Shown: in pieces, positions 48,287 through 55,691 of the stretch
How the letters are laid out: the number at the start of each line of letters is the position of its first letter
How positions within the stretch are numbered: position 1 is the stretch's first letter
Assembly (NCBI GenBank): GCA_000972765.1
Contig: CP011265.1
Span: forward strand, 1,488,001-1,552,000
Direction of reading: 5' to 3'
Length of the DNA: 64,000 bases
From: Verrucomicrobia bacterium IMCC26134
Lineage (GTDB): Bacteria; Verrucomicrobiota; Verrucomicrobiia; Opitutales; Opitutaceae
The notes under the pieces: model-generated
The model's input: only the letters and a program-made list of their open reading frames with translations
Database searches by the model: none
Told to the model about the DNA's origin: nothing
Translations under genes and position numbers: made by a program

Positions 48287-49636
48287 CTACCGGAAGAGTT
48301 CCTGGTTGAGGAGGTTCTCGAGGTATTCCTGTTTGCCGCTCTTGAGGGTGGGCTCGCCGAGGGCGCCGAGGACGAGTTTTTCCAGGCTCTCGAAGCTGGC
48401 CTTTCCGGTCTCGATATCCTTTCCGTATCCCGAATCGTAGGTCGCATAGCGGGCGGCGACGTGGTTGGAGAATTTGCCTTCGGTGTTGATGCGGTGGGCG
48501 AGCTTGAGGGCCTGCGCATAGGTATCCATGCCGCCGATGTGGGCGTGGAAGAGGTCGGCGAGGTCGGTGGAGGGGCGGCGGAGCTTGGCGTCGAAGTTGA
48601 AGCCGCCCGAGCCGAGGCCGCCGTATTTGAGGATGCTCATCATCGCGAGGGTGAGCTCCTTGGTGTCGGTGGAGAACTGGTCGGTATCCCAGCCGACGAG
48701 TAGGTCGCCGGTGTTGGCGTCGATGGAGCCCAGCATTCCGGCGGAGCCCGCGACCTCGATCTCGTGCTGGAAGGTGTGGCCGGCGAGAGTGGCGTGGTTG
48801 GTCTCGATGTTGAACTTGAAATACTTGTGCAGTCCGTAGGTGCGCAGGAATCCGATGCAGGTGGCGACATCGAAATCGTATTGGTGCTTGGTGGGCTCCT
48901 TGGGCTTGGGCTCGATGAGGAACTGGCCCTTGAAGCCGATCTTCTTGGCGTAATCCACCGCGAGACCAAGGAAGCGGGCGAGGTGGTCCTGTTCGCGCTT
49001 GAGATTGGTGTTGAGCAGGGTCTCGTAGCCCTCGCGACCGCCCCAGAAAACGTAGTTCTCGCCGCCGAGTTCCTGGGTGACGTCGATGGCCTTCTTCACC
49101 TGTGCGGCGGCGTAGGCGAAGACGTGGGCGTCGGGGTTGGTGGAGGCGCCGCACATGAAGCGCGGGTTGCTGAAAAGGTTGGCGGTGCCCCAGAGGAGTT
49201 TGACGCCGGTGGCCTGTTGGAGGGACTTCGCGTGGGCGACGACGGCATCGAGGTTCTTGTTGGACTCGGCGAGGGAGGCACCCTCGGGGGCGATGTCGCG
49301 GTCGTGGAAGCACCAGAAGGGCGCGCCGATTTTTTGATAGAACTCGAAGGCGGCATCCATGCGAACCTTGGCGACGGAGACGGCGTCCTTTGAGGAGGAT
49401 TCCCATTTGCGGACGATGGTGCCTGGGCCGAAGGGGTCGGCGCCGGTGCCGCGGAAGGAGTGCCAGTAGGCGATGCCGAAGCGGAGATGCTCGGCCATGG
49501 TTTTGTCGCCGACTTTTTCGGATGCGTTGTAGTGTTTGAACGCGAGCGGATTATTGCTCTTAGGGCCTTCGTAGGCGATTTTAGGGACACCGGCGAAGTG
49601 CTCGACGGCTTTGGTGGTCGTGGTGGCTTTGGCCAT
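48287..49636 (-). CDS. xylA: Xylose isomerase, class II
   Basis: Converts D-xylose to D-xylulose. 449 residues from the ATG at 49636, the length of class II enzymes. [20 protein letters not shown] opens the barrel; [20 protein letters not shown] supplies the catalytic His-Asp pair. [20 protein letters not shown] has metal-ligand Glu and Lys, [20 protein letters not shown] supplies the next ligands, and [20 protein letters not shown] carries the Asp metal site. All are intact. It begins 32 bp after the LacI-type regulator on the same strand, which suggests an autoregulated lacI-xylA operon. No xylulokinase is present in the window. Confidence 0.96.
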
Positions 49637-49668: not shown

Positions 49669-50745
49669 TTAGGTGCGTGGTTTGGCCAGAGTGGCGCCGG
49701 CGTCCCAAGTGGGATCGACATGTATGACGCGCCGTGGCGATGTCGGCTCAAGCATGCGACTGATGAGGCGTGCGACGGAGGAGGCACCGATGTCCTCATA
49801 GGGAACACGGACGGTGGCGAGTGCGGGCAGGCCGGGCGGGGGGGGCTGACCGTCAAACCCGGCAAGGCTTAGGTCGCGGGGCACCTGGATACCCAACCGG
49901 GCGAGGTCGGCGAAAAGTGCGAAGGCCTGGTGGTCTGCGGCGCAGAGCCAGGCGGTGGGACCGGATTTTTTGCGAGAGAGGGAGGCGACTCGGGCGGCGA
50001 TCGATGCCGGCGTAGGATAGGCTGGCGCCGAGGCGTGGATATTGAGGACGTGATCGGCAACAAGATCGAGCCCATGTGCGGCCAGAGCGGCGGCGTAGGC
50101 CGCGTAGCGGTGCGAACCCCAGTGGCCGCCGGCAGGGTAGCGCCAGTGGAGGAATCCAATGTGCCGGTGGCCGAGCCGGACGAGGGCGGCGACGTGGCGG
50201 GCGACGGCGGTGTGGTCGGTGTCCACGAGGTCGGTGGCAGGCGCAGGCGCTGGATATTCCGTGAGCAAGGACACGAGGGGAAGCTTGCGCGCCAGCAAGG
50301 CCACGACGTCGTTAGGAAACGGATACAATAGAAGCGCTCCGCGCCAGCCGCCGGCCCGTATCCTCCTGAAAACCTCGCGGCGGCATTTCAGGGGATCGAT
50401 GTCGAGACCGCCGCCGGCGAGGTCGATCACATCCACGCGGGCTGATTCCACCGAGGCGCGGCGGTGAATGCCTTCGAGCAGACGCGGAAGACTCCGCCCG
50501 TCGGCTGGAACGAGAGGGCGACCCAGCAGGACGCCGAAAGCAAGGGAGCGGGCCTGGCGGGTGCGGGATACGGCGCGGCTTGGGCCGGGGCGGTAGCCAA
50601 GCTGGTCGGCGAGGGCCAAAACGCGGGCGCGGGTCGAGGCGTTTATGGCCGGATGGTTTGAAAGGGCGCGCGAGACCGTGGTGTGCGAGAGGCGCAGGTG
50701 GCGAGCCAGTTCCAGCTGATTTATGGATGGGTTCGGGGAGCTCAC
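49669..50745 (-). CDS. LacI-family transcriptional regulator, likely of xylose utilisation (XylR-type)
   Basis: About 358 residues with the GTG at 50745; the ATG at 50805 would add an unlikely cysteine-rich leader. The helix-turn-helix is [20 protein letters not shown] with the hinge [11 protein letters not shown], and the sugar-binding domain of periplasmic-binding-protein type follows ([72 protein letters not shown]). It probably senses xylose or a derivative and represses its own operon with xylA. Paired palindromes at 50796 and 50881 flank its promoter. Confidence 0.88.
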
Positions 50746-50782
50746 GGGCGACGGTGGACCGGAGTTAGGTCCGGCCGTGAAG

Positions 50783-50792
50783 ATTGTGCAAT
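50783..50792. promoter_or_regulatory. Imperfect operator-like half site
   Basis: ATTGTGCAAT, sharing the TGTGCA core with the two palindromes nearby and centred 13 bp from the first. It could be a weaker auxiliary site of the same regulator. Confidence 0.35.
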
Positions 50793-50795
50793 ATA

Positions 50796-50805
50796 ATGTG
50801 CACAT
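50796..50805. promoter_or_regulatory. Operator-like palindrome O1 (ATGTGCACAT)
   Basis: A perfect 10-bp palindrome overlapping the alternative ATG start of the LacI gene. Its core TGTGCACA recurs 85 bp away. It is a candidate binding site for the neighbouring LacI-family protein. Confidence 0.5.
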
Positions 50806-51167
50806 GATTTATTTTTAGTTACTTCAAAATAACTAATGCATTATTTGTTAACTATTTAAAAATACAAAAACTTAAAAAATATGTGCACACGATATGATAA
50901 AAAATGCCCTGTGTGATAGTATAACCTGTTTGGAGTGTCCGCGCGCGATGTTTGCCGGTAAGACGTGATGAACCCCTTCCAAGAATAATCCTCGCGACCG
51001 ATCACCCCCTTGCGCGGGATCAGTTCGGCCCAAGGAGTTGTGGACGACCTAATGCTACTTTTTTAAATGAGAATTGGCCGAACAGGTCGCTGAAGACGTA
51101 AAAAGAGACGGCTGTTTTCTTGTGCTTTTTTGCCTTTTCCAGGCCGTTATTAGGCGCTGATCAGCGC
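50806..51167. other. AT-rich promoter region of the lacI-xylA operon and spacer
   Basis: No gene found. Bases 50806-50930 are strongly AT-rich and hold runs of A and T that fit a promoter reading to the left; a TTGTAT/ATAATG pair on the minus strand is one candidate. The second operator-like palindrome is inside. The remainder to 51149 shows no clear signal; the giant exoprotein gene ends at 51168 within a 22-bp palindrome (51150-51171). Confidence 0.55.
50881..50890. promoter_or_regulatory. Operator-like palindrome O2 (TGTGCACA core)
   Basis: ATGTGCACAC, with the 8-bp palindromic core at 50882-50889, centred 85 bp from O1, about eight helical turns. The spacing would allow a DNA loop over the promoter. 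Confidence 0.5.
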
Positions 51168-51171
51168 CTAA
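51150..51171. repeat. Perfect 22-bp palindrome at the 3' end of the giant exoprotein gene
   Basis: TTAGGCGCTGATCAGCGCCTAA reads the same on both strands and overlaps the TAG stop codon at 51168-51170. No T-run follows on the coding strand, so it is not a classic terminator, but in RNA it would form a strong hairpin protecting the 3' end. Confidence 0.75.
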
Positions 51172-54100
51172 TCCTGCACGACTCTCAAGCGCAGGAAGGC
51201 GGTGCCGGTGGGGGTGTCTTCGAGCGGAGTGGTAAAGACGTAAGTGACAAGATCGAAGGCGCCGTCGGCGACGGGCAAGCCGACGGGGGCGGCGGCGGCG
51301 GCGGCCCCGGGCGCGGTCAAACCCGCGACGGTGGTTGCGGCCTCGGGGATGAAAGTGGCTCCGGGGCGGGAGCGGAGCACGCGGGTGGTGAGGGTCAGGT
51401 AGGTGCGCCCTGCGATGGCGGCGGGATACTCGGCGGGGTCGAGTGCGCGCAGCGCGAGTTGCGGATGGTGGGCGGCGGCATCGGAGATGACGGGGTCGCC
51501 GCCGAGGAGCCATTCGAGGGCGTTGGCAAGGCCGTCGCCATCGGGATCGGCGGCGAAGGCGGCGGCCTCGACGGGCAGGCCGCGCGGGGCGATCCAGTCG
51601 GCGAAGCCGGGGAGGGCGAGCACGCGCAGGGTGCCGTTGCTATCGAGGGTGGAGGAGTCCCAGGCGAGGAGGGAGGGAAGGGCGGGCAGGGCGAGGGTTA
51701 CGAAGGAACCGGAGCGCAGGCCGGCGGTGAAGAGGAGGAAGGAATCGCCGTCGGCCAAGGTGCCGCCGAGGTTGGTGACCTCGAGCGCGCCGCCGAGCGA
51801 GAGGGTGCCGCCGACGACGAGCTGGTCGCGCGTGGCGGCGGCGCGATTAAGTTCGAGGCGGGTGCTTGAGCCGGGAACGAGGGTGAGGTTGCCAGAGAAA
51901 GTCAGGGTGCCGACGCCGTCGGAGCCGGGAGCGAGCAGACCGCCCGAGAGGATCGCGGTCGCGCCGGCGAGAGAGCCTGTGCCGGTGAGGGAGCCGCCGG
52001 TATTCACGTTCACCGCGCCCGAAGCGGTGGAGCCGGTGACGCGCAGGGTGCCTGCGTTGACGGAGGTGGGGCCGGTGTAGGTGTTGGCGAGGGGAAGGGT
52101 CCAGACGCCGGGGCCGGTTTTGACCAGGGAGCCGGTGCCGGAAAGGACCTTGTCAAAGATGCCGTCGCCGACGCCGGCAAGGGTGAGCGCGCCGCCGGCG
52201 GTGCTGGTGATGTTGCCACCGCCGCGGGAGTCGCTTTTCACCGTCCAGGTGTCGCCGGCCTTGGCGGCTTCAAGGGTGGCGCCGCCGGCGCCGATGGTGA
52301 AGCCGGGGCCGTAGGGCGATTCGGCGGGGTTTTGGGGGACGCCGGCGGCGCCGCCGGTGTAACGGAGGGTGCCGCCGTTTATGATGAAGCGGGCGGGGTT
52401 GTAGGAGAGGCCGCCGAGAGCCTGGGTGCGGTAGGTGGTGTCGGTGATGCCGTAGCCCCAGCGGTCGAGCTCGAGGACGGAGCCGGCGTTGAGGGTGAGC
52501 ACGGCGGAGTTGTTCCACGCGCCGGCGTAGAGCGAGCCGGTGTTGGAAATAGCGAGGGTGCCGCCGTTGACGGTGAGGTTGCCGGTGAAGGTGTTGGAGG
52601 CGGTGAGGGACAGGCGACCGGCGCCGTTCTTGACGAGGACGAGGCCGGTGGTGGCGCTGCCGTTGGATGCTACGCCGGCGAGAGTGAAGTCGCCCCCGCC
52701 GGAGAAAGTCACGGTGCGCGTGCCGGAGGCCCCGGAAGTCAGTCCGCCGAGAACGAGGTTGCCGGCGTCGGACTGGATGAGGTAGCTCGCGCCGCCGATC
52801 TGGACGGAGAGGACGCCGAGGGTGTTGAGGCCGGAGAGATTGCGGACGGCGGGCACGGTGTTGTTGCGCCCGTTGAGGGAGAGGGAGGCTGAGGTGGCGA
52901 TGTCGCCGAGGGCGGCGCTGAGCTCGAGGGTGGAGGAGCCTGAGTTATTGGTGCGTATCTGGAGCGTCGATACGTCGGCGATGGCGTCGGAGTGGGCGAC
53001 GCGGACGACGCCCTGGGCGGCGGTGCTGCTGGCGTTGTCGATGTTGACGAGGCCGGAGAGGCTGCCGCCGCCGGCGAGAACAAGGGTGCCCGCGCCGGAT
53101 TTTGAGAAGCCGTTGGAGCCTTCGAGGGGTAGGGCGAGGGTGGCGGTGTTCTGGTTGACGGCGATGGCTGGCGAGGTGGAGGAGCCGGTGTCGAGGGTGA
53201 GGGAGGCGCCATCGGCGGAGAGGAGCGTCCAGCTTTGGGCGCCGGAGTTGTCGCCGAAGGAGAGGGAGCCTATGCCGCGCGAGCTGTCGAGGGTGACGGA
53301 GCGGTCGGCGGTGATGTCGAGGGTGGAGAAGTTGGCGGAGGCGTTGGCGCCATTGGCAGGGAAGGAGGATGTCCATTTGAGGACATCGCTCCAGTTGCCG
53401 TCGGTGTCGGTGAGCCAGGTGCCATTGCCGATGACGTAGGGCATGCTGATGGCGAGCACGGCGGAGTCGCTGGCGCCAGTGGCGTCGGTGGCGGAGACGA
53501 CGAACTCCTGAGGGCCATCGTTGGCGAAGCCGGGGGTGCCGGAGAGGGTGCCGTCGGCGGCGACGAGGAGCCAAGAGGGACCGGATACCTTGGCGTAAGT
53601 GAGGCTATCGGCCGGGTCGGCGTCGGTGGCGGAGCCGGCAAGGCTGCCTGAGTAGGGTTGATTTTGAGTGGCGGAGCCGCCGACGATGGTGGCGGAGGCG
53701 AATTGAGGGGCTACGTTGGCACTCTGCATCGCGGTGATCTGGGCGGGGGTAAAGGCGAAGTCGGCGATGCGCACATCGTCGAGCAGGCCGGCGAAGAGCG
53801 GGTCGGAGGAGAAGCGGCTTTTGCCGAGGTAGTTCAGGTCGGCGCTGACCTGCGACGGCGTGATGGAAATGGGGCCATTGGCGGCCTCGGTGCCGTTGAC
53901 GTAGAGGCGTGCGGTGCCCCCAGTGAGTGTGACGGCGACGTGGGTCCACTGCCCGATAGGGAGGGCGTTGGCGGTTTGCACGGTCTGTTCTGAGCCTGAG
54001 TTACGGGTGGCAAAACGCAGGTGGCCGCCGGTGGCGCTCGTGGTGAGGAACAGGTAGCGCGAGGTGTCTTTGCCGAAGTCGAAGATGCGTTGCCAGCTTG

Positions 54101-55691
54101 CTCCGCCGTCCCAGTAAACCCAGGCGGCGAAGCTGAAGGAGGACGAACCGGCGACATCGGGCGGGAGCTGGAGGTGTTGGGTGGTTCCGTCGAGGCGCAG
54201 GGCCTGGCCGGTGCGGCCGGAGGCAAAGGCGGGACGGCCGACGGCGATGGCGTTGTTGCCCTGGCCGGAAGAGTCGAGGGTGTCGCCGTCGAGGGCGAGC
54301 TGGGTGAGGGCGCGCGAGCCGGTGCGCGGGAGACGTTGGACGTAGCTCATAGGCGCGACGTTGTCGCGATATGCGATACCGGCCGGGGTGAGTCCGCCGG
54401 TGTCGTAGGTCATCTGGCGCATGTATTCAACTTTGCTGTAAATGGAGTAGCGCTCGATCCAGGGGGTGTCATCCATCATGGCGATGAACTCACCAATGCG
54501 AGTGGCGTTCTGGGCGTAGGAGGGGTCGGTGCAGGTGGTCCAGTCCGCGCCGTTGTTGAATTCGGTGACCCAGAGGGGACGGCCGGTCTGGACGTGGATG
54601 GCGTAGAGCCAATCGTAGAGCTGGGAGGCGGTGAAGCCGCAGCGGTAGAAGTGGACGGCGACGTAGTCCACGCGCAGCTTGGCGGCGTCGGCCTTGGTCA
54701 TGAAATCGTAGAGCCAGCTCAGGCCGCCGTCGGTGGTGACGGGGGAGCCGATACGCAGACCGCTGGCGAGGAGTTCTGGCCACACGGCGATGGCCGTATC
54801 CACGGAGCCATTATTGAGGGAGGTGTAGGAGTCCTCGACTGGGTTGTCGGGCTCGTTGTAGCCGAGGACATGGGTGGAGTCGGGCTTGTTGGTCGGGTAG
54901 GCGGGCCACCAGCGTTGTTGGCGGATGGGCACGTATTCCCAGTCGAGCGCGGAACTCAGGTTGTTGTCCCAATTGTAGTGCCAGGTGGCGTTCAGCGTGG
55001 TGGGGCCGACGTCGGCGGAGCCCTTTTTGGAGACCCAGCGCCAGGGGAAGACGCGCACGAAACGGATGGCGTTATCCATCGAAGAGGGCAGGCGACCGAT
55101 TTCGAGATCGGCGTCCTGGGCGATGTAAACCTGGCTGGGGCCGCTGCCGTTGGTCTGGGTCGAGAACGTCGCCATGTAGCCTCGTTTGAGTTTAAAGGAG
55201 CTGATGTCGCGGTTGAAGGTGCCGAGGGCGGTGGCGCTGTTATAGTAGGTGTATTGGGCGAAGGTGCGCGAGGAGCCGCTGAAATCTCGTCCGGTGAAGG
55301 CCTGGAGCGGCTCGTAGGAAGGCGCCTGCGGGATCACCATCGCGCCGAGTTCGTATTGGACGACGCGCACGTTGTAACCGGAGACTGCGGCGGCGGAGTT
55401 GACCCGTAGTTGAGCGAGGTAAGTGGAGACGACGACGGAGGGCTTGACGGAGGTGAAAAGAACCCAGGAGTTGGGCGAAGTGAGGTTGATGATGCTGCTG
55501 GAGAGCGGGGTGGCGGCGGTGAGGCGCAGCTCGGAATTACCGCTGAGGGTGACGGTGGCGGCGGTGAGGGACGCGTAGGTTTGCACGCCCTCCGAGAGCG
55601 TAATAAGCTGGGCGCTGGCGTAATGCGCCGCCGCGAAGGAAAGGAGCAGGGCAAGGCATGGCACGAGCCAGCGGGGCAACACAAGGGGCAT
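51168..55691 (-). CDS. Giant secreted protein: GH128-like glycosidase, LamG, Ig-like and autotransporter-type beta-strand repeats
   Basis: 1507 residues with a signal peptide (LVPCLALLLSFAAAHYASAQ). Residues about 200-460 form a barrel with TWHYNWDNN, the putative catalytic Glu280 in LGYNEPDN, VDYVAVHFYRCGF and Glu377 in PLWVTEFNNGA, as in GH128/Asl1-like beta-glucanases. About 470-660 is a LamG/concanavalin domain (FAAWVYWDGGASWQRIFDFG, GLLDDVRIADF), about 668-755 an Ig-like repeat, and about 756-1330 repeated Gly/Ser/Thr-rich beta strands with GAGTLVLAGGGSLSG and KTGPGVWTLPLANTYTGPTS, the autotransporter-associated repeat. The C-terminus ends TPTGTAFLRLRVVQD, and no autotransporter barrel is present. 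Probably a surface or extracellular polysaccharide-degrading protein. The substrate is unproven. Confidence 0.85.
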   Translation of the reverse strand: MPLVLPRWLVPCLALLLSFAAAHYASAQLITLSEGVQTYASLTAATVTLSGNSELRLTAATPLSSSIINLTSPNSWVLFTSVKPSVVVSTYLAQLRVNSAAAVSGYNVRVVQYELGAMVIPQAPSYEPLQAFTGRDFSGSSRTFAQYTYYNSATALGTFNRDISSFKLKRGYMATFSTQTNGSGPSQVYIAQDADLEIGRLPSSMDNAIRFVRVFPWRWVSKKGSADVGPTTLNATWHYNWDNNLSSALDWEYVPIRQQRWWPAYPTNKPDSTHVLGYNEPDNPVEDSYTSLNNGSVDTAIAVWPELLASGLRIGSPVTTDGGLSWLYDFMTKADAAKLRVDYVAVHFYRCGFTASQLYDWLYAIHVQTGRPLWVTEFNNGADWTTCTDPSYAQNATRIGEFIAMMDDTPWIERYSIYSKVEYMRQMTYDTGGLTPAGIAYRDNVAPMSYVQRLPRTGSRALTQLALDGDTLDSSGQGNNAIAVGRPAFASGRTGQALRLDGTTQHLQLPPDVAGSSSFSFAAWVYWDGGASWQRIFDFGKDTSRYLFLTTSATGGHLRFATRNSGSEQTVQTANALPIGQWTHVAVTLTGGTARLYVNGTEAANGPISITPSQVSADLNYLGKSRFSSDPLFAGLLDDVRIADFAFTPAQITAMQSANVAPQFASATIVGGSATQNQPYSGSLAGSATDADPADSLTYAKVSGPSWLLVAADGTLSGTPGFANDGPQEFVVSATDATGASDSAVLAISMPYVIGNGTWLTDTDGNWSDVLKWTSSFPANGANASANFSTLDITADRSVTLDSSRGIGSLSFGDNSGAQSWTLLSADGASLTLDTGSSTSPAIAVNQNTATLALPLEGSNGFSKSGAGTLVLAGGGSLSGLVNIDNASSTAAQGVVRVAHSDAIADVSTLQIRTNNSGSSTLELSAALGDIATSASLSLNGRNNTVPAVRNLSGLNTLGVLSVQIGGASYLIQSDAGNLVLGGLTSGASGTRTVTFSGGGDFTLAGVASNGSATTGLVLVKNGAGRLSLTASNTFTGNLTVNGGTLAISNTGSLYAGAWNNSAVLTLNAGSVLELDRWGYGITDTTYRTQALGGLSYNPARFIINGGTLRYTGGAAGVPQNPAESPYGPGFTIGAGGATLEAAKAGDTWTVKSDSRGGGNITSTAGGALTLAGVGDGIFDKVLSGTGSLVKTGPGVWTLPLANTYTGPTSVNAGTLRVTGSTASGAVNVNTGGSLTGTGSLAGATAILSGGLLAPGSDGVGTLTFSGNLTLVPGSSTRLELNRAAATRDQLVVGGTLSLGGALEVTNLGGTLADGDSFLLFTAGLRSGSFVTLALPALPSLLAWDSSTLDSNGTLRVLALPGFADWIAPRGLPVEAAAFAADPDGDGLANALEWLLGGDPVISDAAAHHPQLALRALDPAEYPAAIAGRTYLTLTTRVLRSRPGATFIPEAATTVAGLTAPGAAAAAAPVGLPVADGAFDLVTYVFTTPLEDTPTGTAFLRLRVVQD

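What the first reader, a model, noticed from the sequence alone, without database searches (positions are those of the whole stretch)
50783..50890. Paired TGTGCACA palindromes around the lacI-xylA promoter
Two perfect 8-bp palindrome cores (50797-50804, 50882-50889) are centred 85 bp apart, about eight helical turns, in the AT-rich promoter of a LacI-family gene followed 32 bp later by xylA. A third related site (ATTGTGCAAT) lies 13 bp from O1. This fits autoregulation by looping. Canonical LacI-family sites have a central CG, while these have a central GC, so the recognition may differ.
Basis: partly seen in the sequence, partly recalled or inferred. Interest (0 to 1): 0.5.

Follow-up and report, generated by a model that had tools for sequence, protein, structure and literature searches.

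The report
Operator boxes of a xylose repressor
The marked sites are most likely the DNA boxes by which a LacI-type sugar regulator controls its own gene and the xylose isomerase gene behind it; the boxes change together with one amino acid of the regulator, which points to direct contact, but the layout is unlike the textbook LacI operator.

Summary
In detail: two TGTGCACA sites 85 bp apart, plus ATTGTGCAAT, lie in the AT-rich promoter of a LacI-family gene 32 bp ahead of xylA. The 4.0 Mb genome (Opitutaceae-like, Verrucomicrobiota) holds only 22 such octamers. The reading is partly right. The core TGCACA is upstream of 16 of 16 xylA-linked orthologues with promoter sequence (2.45 expected), but the palindrome is in only 5; eleven carry asymmetric TTGCAC boxes, all 20 in gene direction. 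The best evidence that the regulator itself binds is covariation: over 53 promoters of the subfamily the base before TGCA is T when recognition-helix residue 22 is Ala (23/27) and G when it is Thr/Ser (25/26); a tree-based model supports it, a stricter independent-pairs test is too small to. The single Thr exception is the window's own third box. The regulator lacks the hinge Ala/Leu that meet the central CpG of canonical operators and the LacI tetramer helix, so a CytR-like mode (TGTGCAAC-type half-sites, flexible linker) fits better than palindromes with LacI-type looping. In this genome xylB also has three boxes; relatives do not keep them. Binding, effector and sign of control are inferred. 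New variant of a known kind; moderate interest.

The parts
50882..50889 (-). distal box, TGTGCACA
   Evidence: a distal box 55-89 bp upstream of the proximal one in 10 same-genus promoters incl. this one
50797..50804 (-). proximal box, TGTGCACA
   Evidence: proximal box in orthologues
50785..50791 (-). third box, TTGCACA in gene direction, 12 bp downstream of the proximal box; together TGTGCAC-N6-TTGCACA
   Evidence: a third box 12-14 bp on in L001 and L005-L009 (6 of 16)
49669..50745 (-). LacI-family regulator gene (xylR-like), likely GTG start
50668..50685 (-). recognition helix HTTVSR (residues 21-26); residue 22 (Thr) is the one that covaries with the box base
50563..50589 (-). linker PGPSRAVSR (residues 53-61) in place of the hinge helix: Arg57 and Ser60 where LacI, PurR and GalR have Ala and Leu
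48287..49636 (-). xylA, xylose isomerase
   Evidence: TIGR02630 700.4 bits

Best explanation
The sites are operator boxes of the LacI-family regulator encoded directly downstream, which most likely represses a regulator-xylA transcript until xylose or a related sugar binds. Each box is a half-site N-TGCAY-A in gene direction, read by the recognition helix; residue 22 (position 16 in GalR numbering) goes with the base before TGCA. Because the linker lacks the Ala and Leu that meet a central CpG in canonical members, dimers probably accept half-sites in varied spacing and order, as E. coli CytR does. Shown here: presence, conservation, direction, covariation, absence of the hinge residues. Inferred: binding, repression rather than activation, xylose as effector, flexible linker, co-transcription.
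For: TGCACA is the top 6-mer in an unguided count, 16 of 16 orthologous promoters (180 nt) against 2.45 in dinucleotide shuffles; in 51 further promoters of the subfamily GTGCAC is in 20 (1.79 expected) and TGCACA in 29 (6.09); neither is among the top 12 in 15 promoters of the SRCF group. The regulator-xylA order is kept in 17 loci within about 150 bp. Best-box base against residue 22, that base not scored: Ala 23 T, 4 G; Thr or Ser 25 G, 1 T; Fisher 6.8e-10. Correlated-evolution model LR 22.9; 0 of 100 uncorrelated simulations as high (maximum 11.4; 11.8 with the same starting points for data and simulations). Residue 22 has the highest corrected mutual information with the base of the columns tested, 0.50 of 0.99 bits, 55 rows. 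Hinge positions: Arg/Ser here, Arg/Arg in the other 16 xylA-linked proteins; CytR Gly/Val; LacI, PurR, GalR Ala/Leu. Model: no helix from 49 to 67, pLDDT under 50 at 55-58. CytR half-sites AYGTGCAAC / GTTRCATT are quoted in PMC3454398 (passages). xylB of this genome (TIGR01312 551 bits) has three TGTGCA cores within 100 bp of its ATG.
Against: The window is the one exception among the Thr/Ser rows: its best-scoring box is the third, TTGCACA; its two TGTGCACA boxes fit. Four Ala proteins (L052, L079, and the near-identical L090 and L091) have G. Independent pairs: only 4 on supported branches, on average 2.9 the same way, 0.1 the other, median p 0.25. I set the box score after seeing the promoters, though base 0 was left out of it. 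By z-score residue 22 ties for second behind column 27, a clade marker. xylB boxes are not kept: of 10 other same-genus genomes with both genes none has two or more boxes (4 have one), and G001 and G009, where no orthologue at E 1e-70 was found, share a TGTGCAAT there. Of the other four FGGY genes three have no box in 320 nt, one a single TGCACA at -302. Clustered direct boxes: 6 in this genome against 3 for the reversed control. The genus form of the box at up to 2 mismatches is little above its control, 69 against 42 in 7 genomes. No sigma-70-like promoter was found. Nothing here shows binding or the effector.
Confidence: 0.72

Rival explanations
1. Canonical LacI-type system: each TGTGCACA is a symmetric operator for one dimer and the two are bridged by a loop of about eight helical turns.
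For: Two perfect octamers 85 bp apart; 10 same-genus promoters have two boxes 55-89 bp apart; phases of these 10 are somewhat clustered, Rayleigh p about 0.02-0.03.
Against: TGTGCACA in 5 of 16 promoters; asymmetric TTGCAC boxes all in one direction, 20 of 20; hinge residues missing; the C-terminus ends like those of PurR and CytR, without the LacI extension (its role in tetramers is recalled); phasing p 0.15-0.18 with five clades counted once. Two helix-turn-helix domains could hardly each read a TGTG so close to the dyad (inference).
Confidence: 0.12
2. The boxes are bound by another regulator (a CRP-like protein or another LacI paralogue) and the linked gene is only a target.
For: G001 and G009 keep a TGTGCAAT upstream of xylB although no close orthologue of the regulator was found (assemblies 92% and 77% complete); CytR acts together with CRP in E. 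coli (PMC3454398, passages).
Against: Covariation of the base with the regulator's recognition helix; the core is enriched upstream of regulator genes of the same subfamily in other genera. The spacing does not fit TGTGA-N6-TCACA (recalled).
Confidence: 0.12
3. The TTGCAC...TTGC boxes are a core promoter, for instance sigma-54.
For: TTGCAC-N6-TTGC resembles TGGCAC-N5-TTGC (recalled consensus).
Against: The second box follows at 12, 13, 14 or 16 bp, and only in some promoters; the GG is missing; distal boxes 55-89 bp upstream would be unexplained.
Confidence: 0.03
4. Chance sites in AT-rich DNA.
For: Single octamers also occur inside genes, one of them in this window.
Against: Core in 16 of 16 orthologous promoters; 0.9% chance of such a close pair.
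Confidence: 0.01

Closest known systems
E. coli CytR (LacI family)
   Same: Lacks the hinge Ala/Leu (Gly/Val) and has ATVSRA in the recognition helix like the Ala-22 relatives; its half-site AYGTGCAAC (PMC3454398 passages) contains the reverse complement of the relatives' GTTGCACA; half-sites in direct or inverted order with varied spacing.
   Different: Far below the CytR model cut-off (62.3 against 436 bits); linked to xylA, not to nucleoside genes; CRP partner not tested; the window's protein has His21-Thr22.
Canonical LacI-family local sugar regulators (RegPrecise set, PMC4052901)
   Same: Mostly local and autoregulated; over 75% of sites 30-140 bp upstream of the start; about 20% of operons with more than one site (passages).
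   Different: Those are mostly even palindromes with a central CG (1173 of 1303 regulators); here half-sites without a central CG. 'Verrucomicrobi' has 0 occurrences in that paper's held main text.
EbgR-like LacI-family regulators (PMC2329647)
   Same: Absence of the hinge Ala and Leu goes with absence of the central CG pair (passages).
   Different: Those operators have a single central C or G (passages) and come from another lineage.
Other regulators named XylR
   Same: Control of xylose genes (search listing only, five papers).
   Different: None of the five listed concerns Verrucomicrobiota by title and start of abstract; none was opened.

Membership tests
LacI family | LacI helix-turn-helix (PF00356) and periplasmic-binding-protein-like domain (PF13377) | tested here: met
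   32.8 bits (cut-off 27) and 83.1 bits (cut-off 26.5); Foldseek top hits CcpA, PurR, LacI
LacI family, canonical operator mode | hinge Ala and Leu that contact the central CG | tested here: not met
   Arg57 and Ser60 at GalR positions 51 and 54; Arg/Arg in the other 16 xylA-linked proteins
LacI family, canonical operator mode | palindrome with central CG | tested here: not met
   conserved unit is N-TGCAY-A without a conserved second arm around a CG
LacI-type looping tetramer | C-terminal tetramer helix | tested here: not met
   protein ends 7 residues after the PF13377 match; C-termini listed beside LacI, PurR, GalR, CytR
CytR | equivalog model NF008269 | tested here: not met
   62.3 bits, cut-off 436
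CytR-like mode of binding | half-site TGTGCAAC / GTTGCATT | tested here: inconclusive
   Ala-22 relatives have GTTGCACA or GTTGCATA; the window has TGTGCACA twice and ATTGCACA once
CytR-like mode of binding | relaxed spacing through an unstructured linker | tested here: inconclusive
   box spacing 12-16 bp and 55-89 bp; linker without predicted helix, no control protein folded
CytR-like mode of binding | partnership with CRP | not tested
   no call
xylose regulator | responds to xylose | not testable with these tools
   only linkage to xylA in 17 loci

The most novel reading that the evidence does not exclude
A subfamily of LacI-type regulators in Opitutaceae has given up the hinge-helix/CpG mode and reads TGCA-centred half-sites one by one; a single recognition residue (Ala or Thr/Ser at position 22) switches the neighbouring base between T and G, giving a simple natural specificity code across dozens of paralogues.
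Probability: 0.5. Interest if true: 0.55.

Novelty: new variant of a known kind. Interest (0 to 1): 0.4.

Why it matters
If true, it adds a lineage with many paralogues in which LacI-type proteins bind without the canonical hinge, and gives a one-residue, one-base rule that can be tested by exchanging Thr22 and Ala. It would also help to predict regulons in Verrucomicrobiota; three searches of the open-licence library listed two, none and two papers, none of which looked by its listing like a report of a LacI-family binding motif there (not opened).

Tried and rejected
Exact palindrome as the unit: 5 of 16. LacI-type looping: no tetramer helix, phasing not significant by clade. Sigma-54: spacing varies. 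Sigma-70 scan: none found; the single terminator-like hit is the box pair itself. Conserved xylB control: not found in relatives; among the 51 xylB loci a few others, with no known regulator, also have one or two boxes (L249, L253, L256). Clustered boxes in the own genome: 6 direct places (control 3) and 6 inverted places (control 1). Three of the 6 direct ones are xylB (two overlapping pairs) and this promoter; of the others two lie in ORFs of 447 and 372 aa, one (1852235) is not clearly in a gene. Of the 6 inverted, one is this promoter, three lie in ORFs of 410-413 aa, one overlaps only short ORFs, one was not looked at. A CTTGAAA-like element 7-14 bp after many boxes was seen by eye and not tested.

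Rows dropped: L004 (contig edge, 12 nt upstream) from promoter counts. In the spacing list, boxes further out in L010 and L013 were set aside, L003 has only one box by that pattern, and the five loci of other genera were left out of the phasing (their gaps are 70, 33 and 89, 134, 48 and 16, 145 and 24). For the covariation, of 105 distinct rows I left out 27 SRCF rows, L004, L029, L030, L206, rows with residue 22 other than A, T or S, and rows with a weak box, no box or a base other than G or T, which left 53. One search gave the simulations fewer starting points than the data; one search repeats it with equal ones.

Full report
What is there. The window is G000:C1:1488001-1552000 of a 4.0 Mb one-contig genome. 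On the minus strand a LacI-family gene (49669-50745) is followed after 32 bp by xylA (48287-49636; TIGR02630). Upstream lie TGTGCACA at 50882-50889 and 50797-50804 and, in gene direction, TTGCACA at 50785-50791. The first two are part of a 13-nt direct repeat, the last two form an inverted repeat TGTGCA-N8-TGCACA. TGTGCACA occurs 22 times in the genome; two of 22 random sites within 85 bp has probability 0.009.

Conservation. Seventeen orthologues have xylA in the same direction within about 150 bp: in 12 of the 15 genomes of the genus, the window's included, and in five of other genera of the family. In the 16 with promoter sequence an unguided 6-mer count gave TGCACA first, 16 of 16 against 2.45 in shuffles; TGTGCACA itself is in 5. 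The 11 same-genus promoters carry TTGCAC boxes, 20 in all within 260 bp and all in gene direction; the five of other genera have GTGCAC or GTGCAT instead. Ten same-genus promoters, this one included, have a distal and a proximal box 55-89 bp apart, and six of the 16, this one included, a third box 12-14 bp further on. The gene strand of the gap between regulator and xylA has no box in 16 of 17; the 17th hit is inside xylA.

Who binds. In 51 further promoters of regulators of the same subfamily (SRSL type) the core is enriched too (GTGCAC 20 against 1.79), while in 15 of the SRCF type it is not among the top 12 words. I then picked the best box per promoter by a score that ignores the base before TGCA, and compared that base with the recognition helix. 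With Ala at residue 22 (position 16 in GalR numbering) it is T in 23 and G in 4; with Thr or Ser it is G in 25 and T in 1 (Fisher 6.8e-10). Relatedness inflates such a table: the tree has at least 8 changes of the residue and 6 of the base, and only 4 independent pairs on supported branches (on average 2.9 the same way, 0.1 the other, median p 0.25). A correlated-evolution model on the tree of the sugar-binding domain fits better by LR 22.9; 0 of 100 simulated uncorrelated sets reach this (repeated with equal starting points, maximum 11.8). Residue 22 has the highest corrected mutual information with the base among the columns tested, 0.50 of 0.99 bits over 55 rows; by z-score it ties for second behind column 27, a clade marker. 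The one Thr exception is the window, whose best-scoring box is the third, TTGCACA; its two TGTGCACA boxes fit. With all boxes of score 2.5 or more counted, Thr has 44 G, 5 T, 5 A, 3 C and Ala 50 T, 10 G, 8 A, 1 C.

How it may work. In canonical members a hinge residue, mostly Leu (82%), inserts into a central CG, with a conserved Ala beside it (PMC2978694, passages), and most known motifs are palindromes with a central CG (PMC4052901, passages). Here these positions are Arg and Ser, and Arg/Arg in the 16 other xylA-linked orthologues. Loss of these residues together with loss of the central CG has been described for EbgR-like proteins (PMC2329647, passages). E. coli CytR also lacks them and binds half-sites AYGTGCAAC / GTTRCATT with varied spacing and order (PMC3454398, passages). 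The relatives' GTTGCACA matches that half-site, and CytR has Ala at the residue in question with T before TGCA, as the rule would have it. The predicted model shows no hinge helix and low confidence at residues 55-58; no control protein was folded, so this is weak. I therefore favour a CytR-like mode. Looping by a LacI-type tetramer is unlikely because the C-terminal extension is missing.

Regulon. The genome has five FGGY kinase genes. Only the xylulokinase (551 bits to TIGR01312) has boxes near its start: three TGTGCA cores 98, 79 and 51 bp before the ATG. Three of the other four have none within 320 nt and one a single TGCACA at -302. The xylB boxes are not kept: of 10 other same-genus genomes with both genes, 4 have one box and none has more; G001 and G009, without a close orthologue of the regulator, keep a TGTGCAAT. 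I count xylB as a lead. The control for clustered boxes was not empty (3 against 6).

Verdict. Ordinary in outline (an autoregulated local sugar regulator), less ordinary in its operator. New variant of a known kind. Binding, effector and sign of control are inferred.

Noticed in passing
window 51151-51170: Perfect 20-nt inverted repeat TAGGCGCTGA/TCAGCGCCTA at the 3' end of the gene 51168-55691; no T run follows on the gene's strand.
   Followed up: no
window 51168-55691: 1507-aa protein with a glycosyl hydrolase core, a laminin-G-like domain and PATR repeats, upstream of the regulator in the same direction.
   Followed up: no
window 50745-50805: The regulator ORF is open to an ATG at 50805 that overlaps the proximal box; an ATG at the matching place in 9 of 17 orthologues favours the GTG at 50745.
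   Followed up: partly
L300, L301 (G000:C1:1624598 and 1624778): Two palindromic stretches CAATTGTGCA...TGCACAATT 180 bp apart inside a 410-aa ORF.
   Followed up: no
promoters listed (for instance L070, L073, L085, L014): Many subfamily promoters show CTTGAAA or CTTGTAA 7-14 bp after the box, perhaps a promoter element; seen by eye only.
   Followed up: no
L271 (G001) and L277 (G009), upstream of xylB: TGTGCAAT is kept although no close orthologue of the regulator was found in these genomes.
   Followed up: partly
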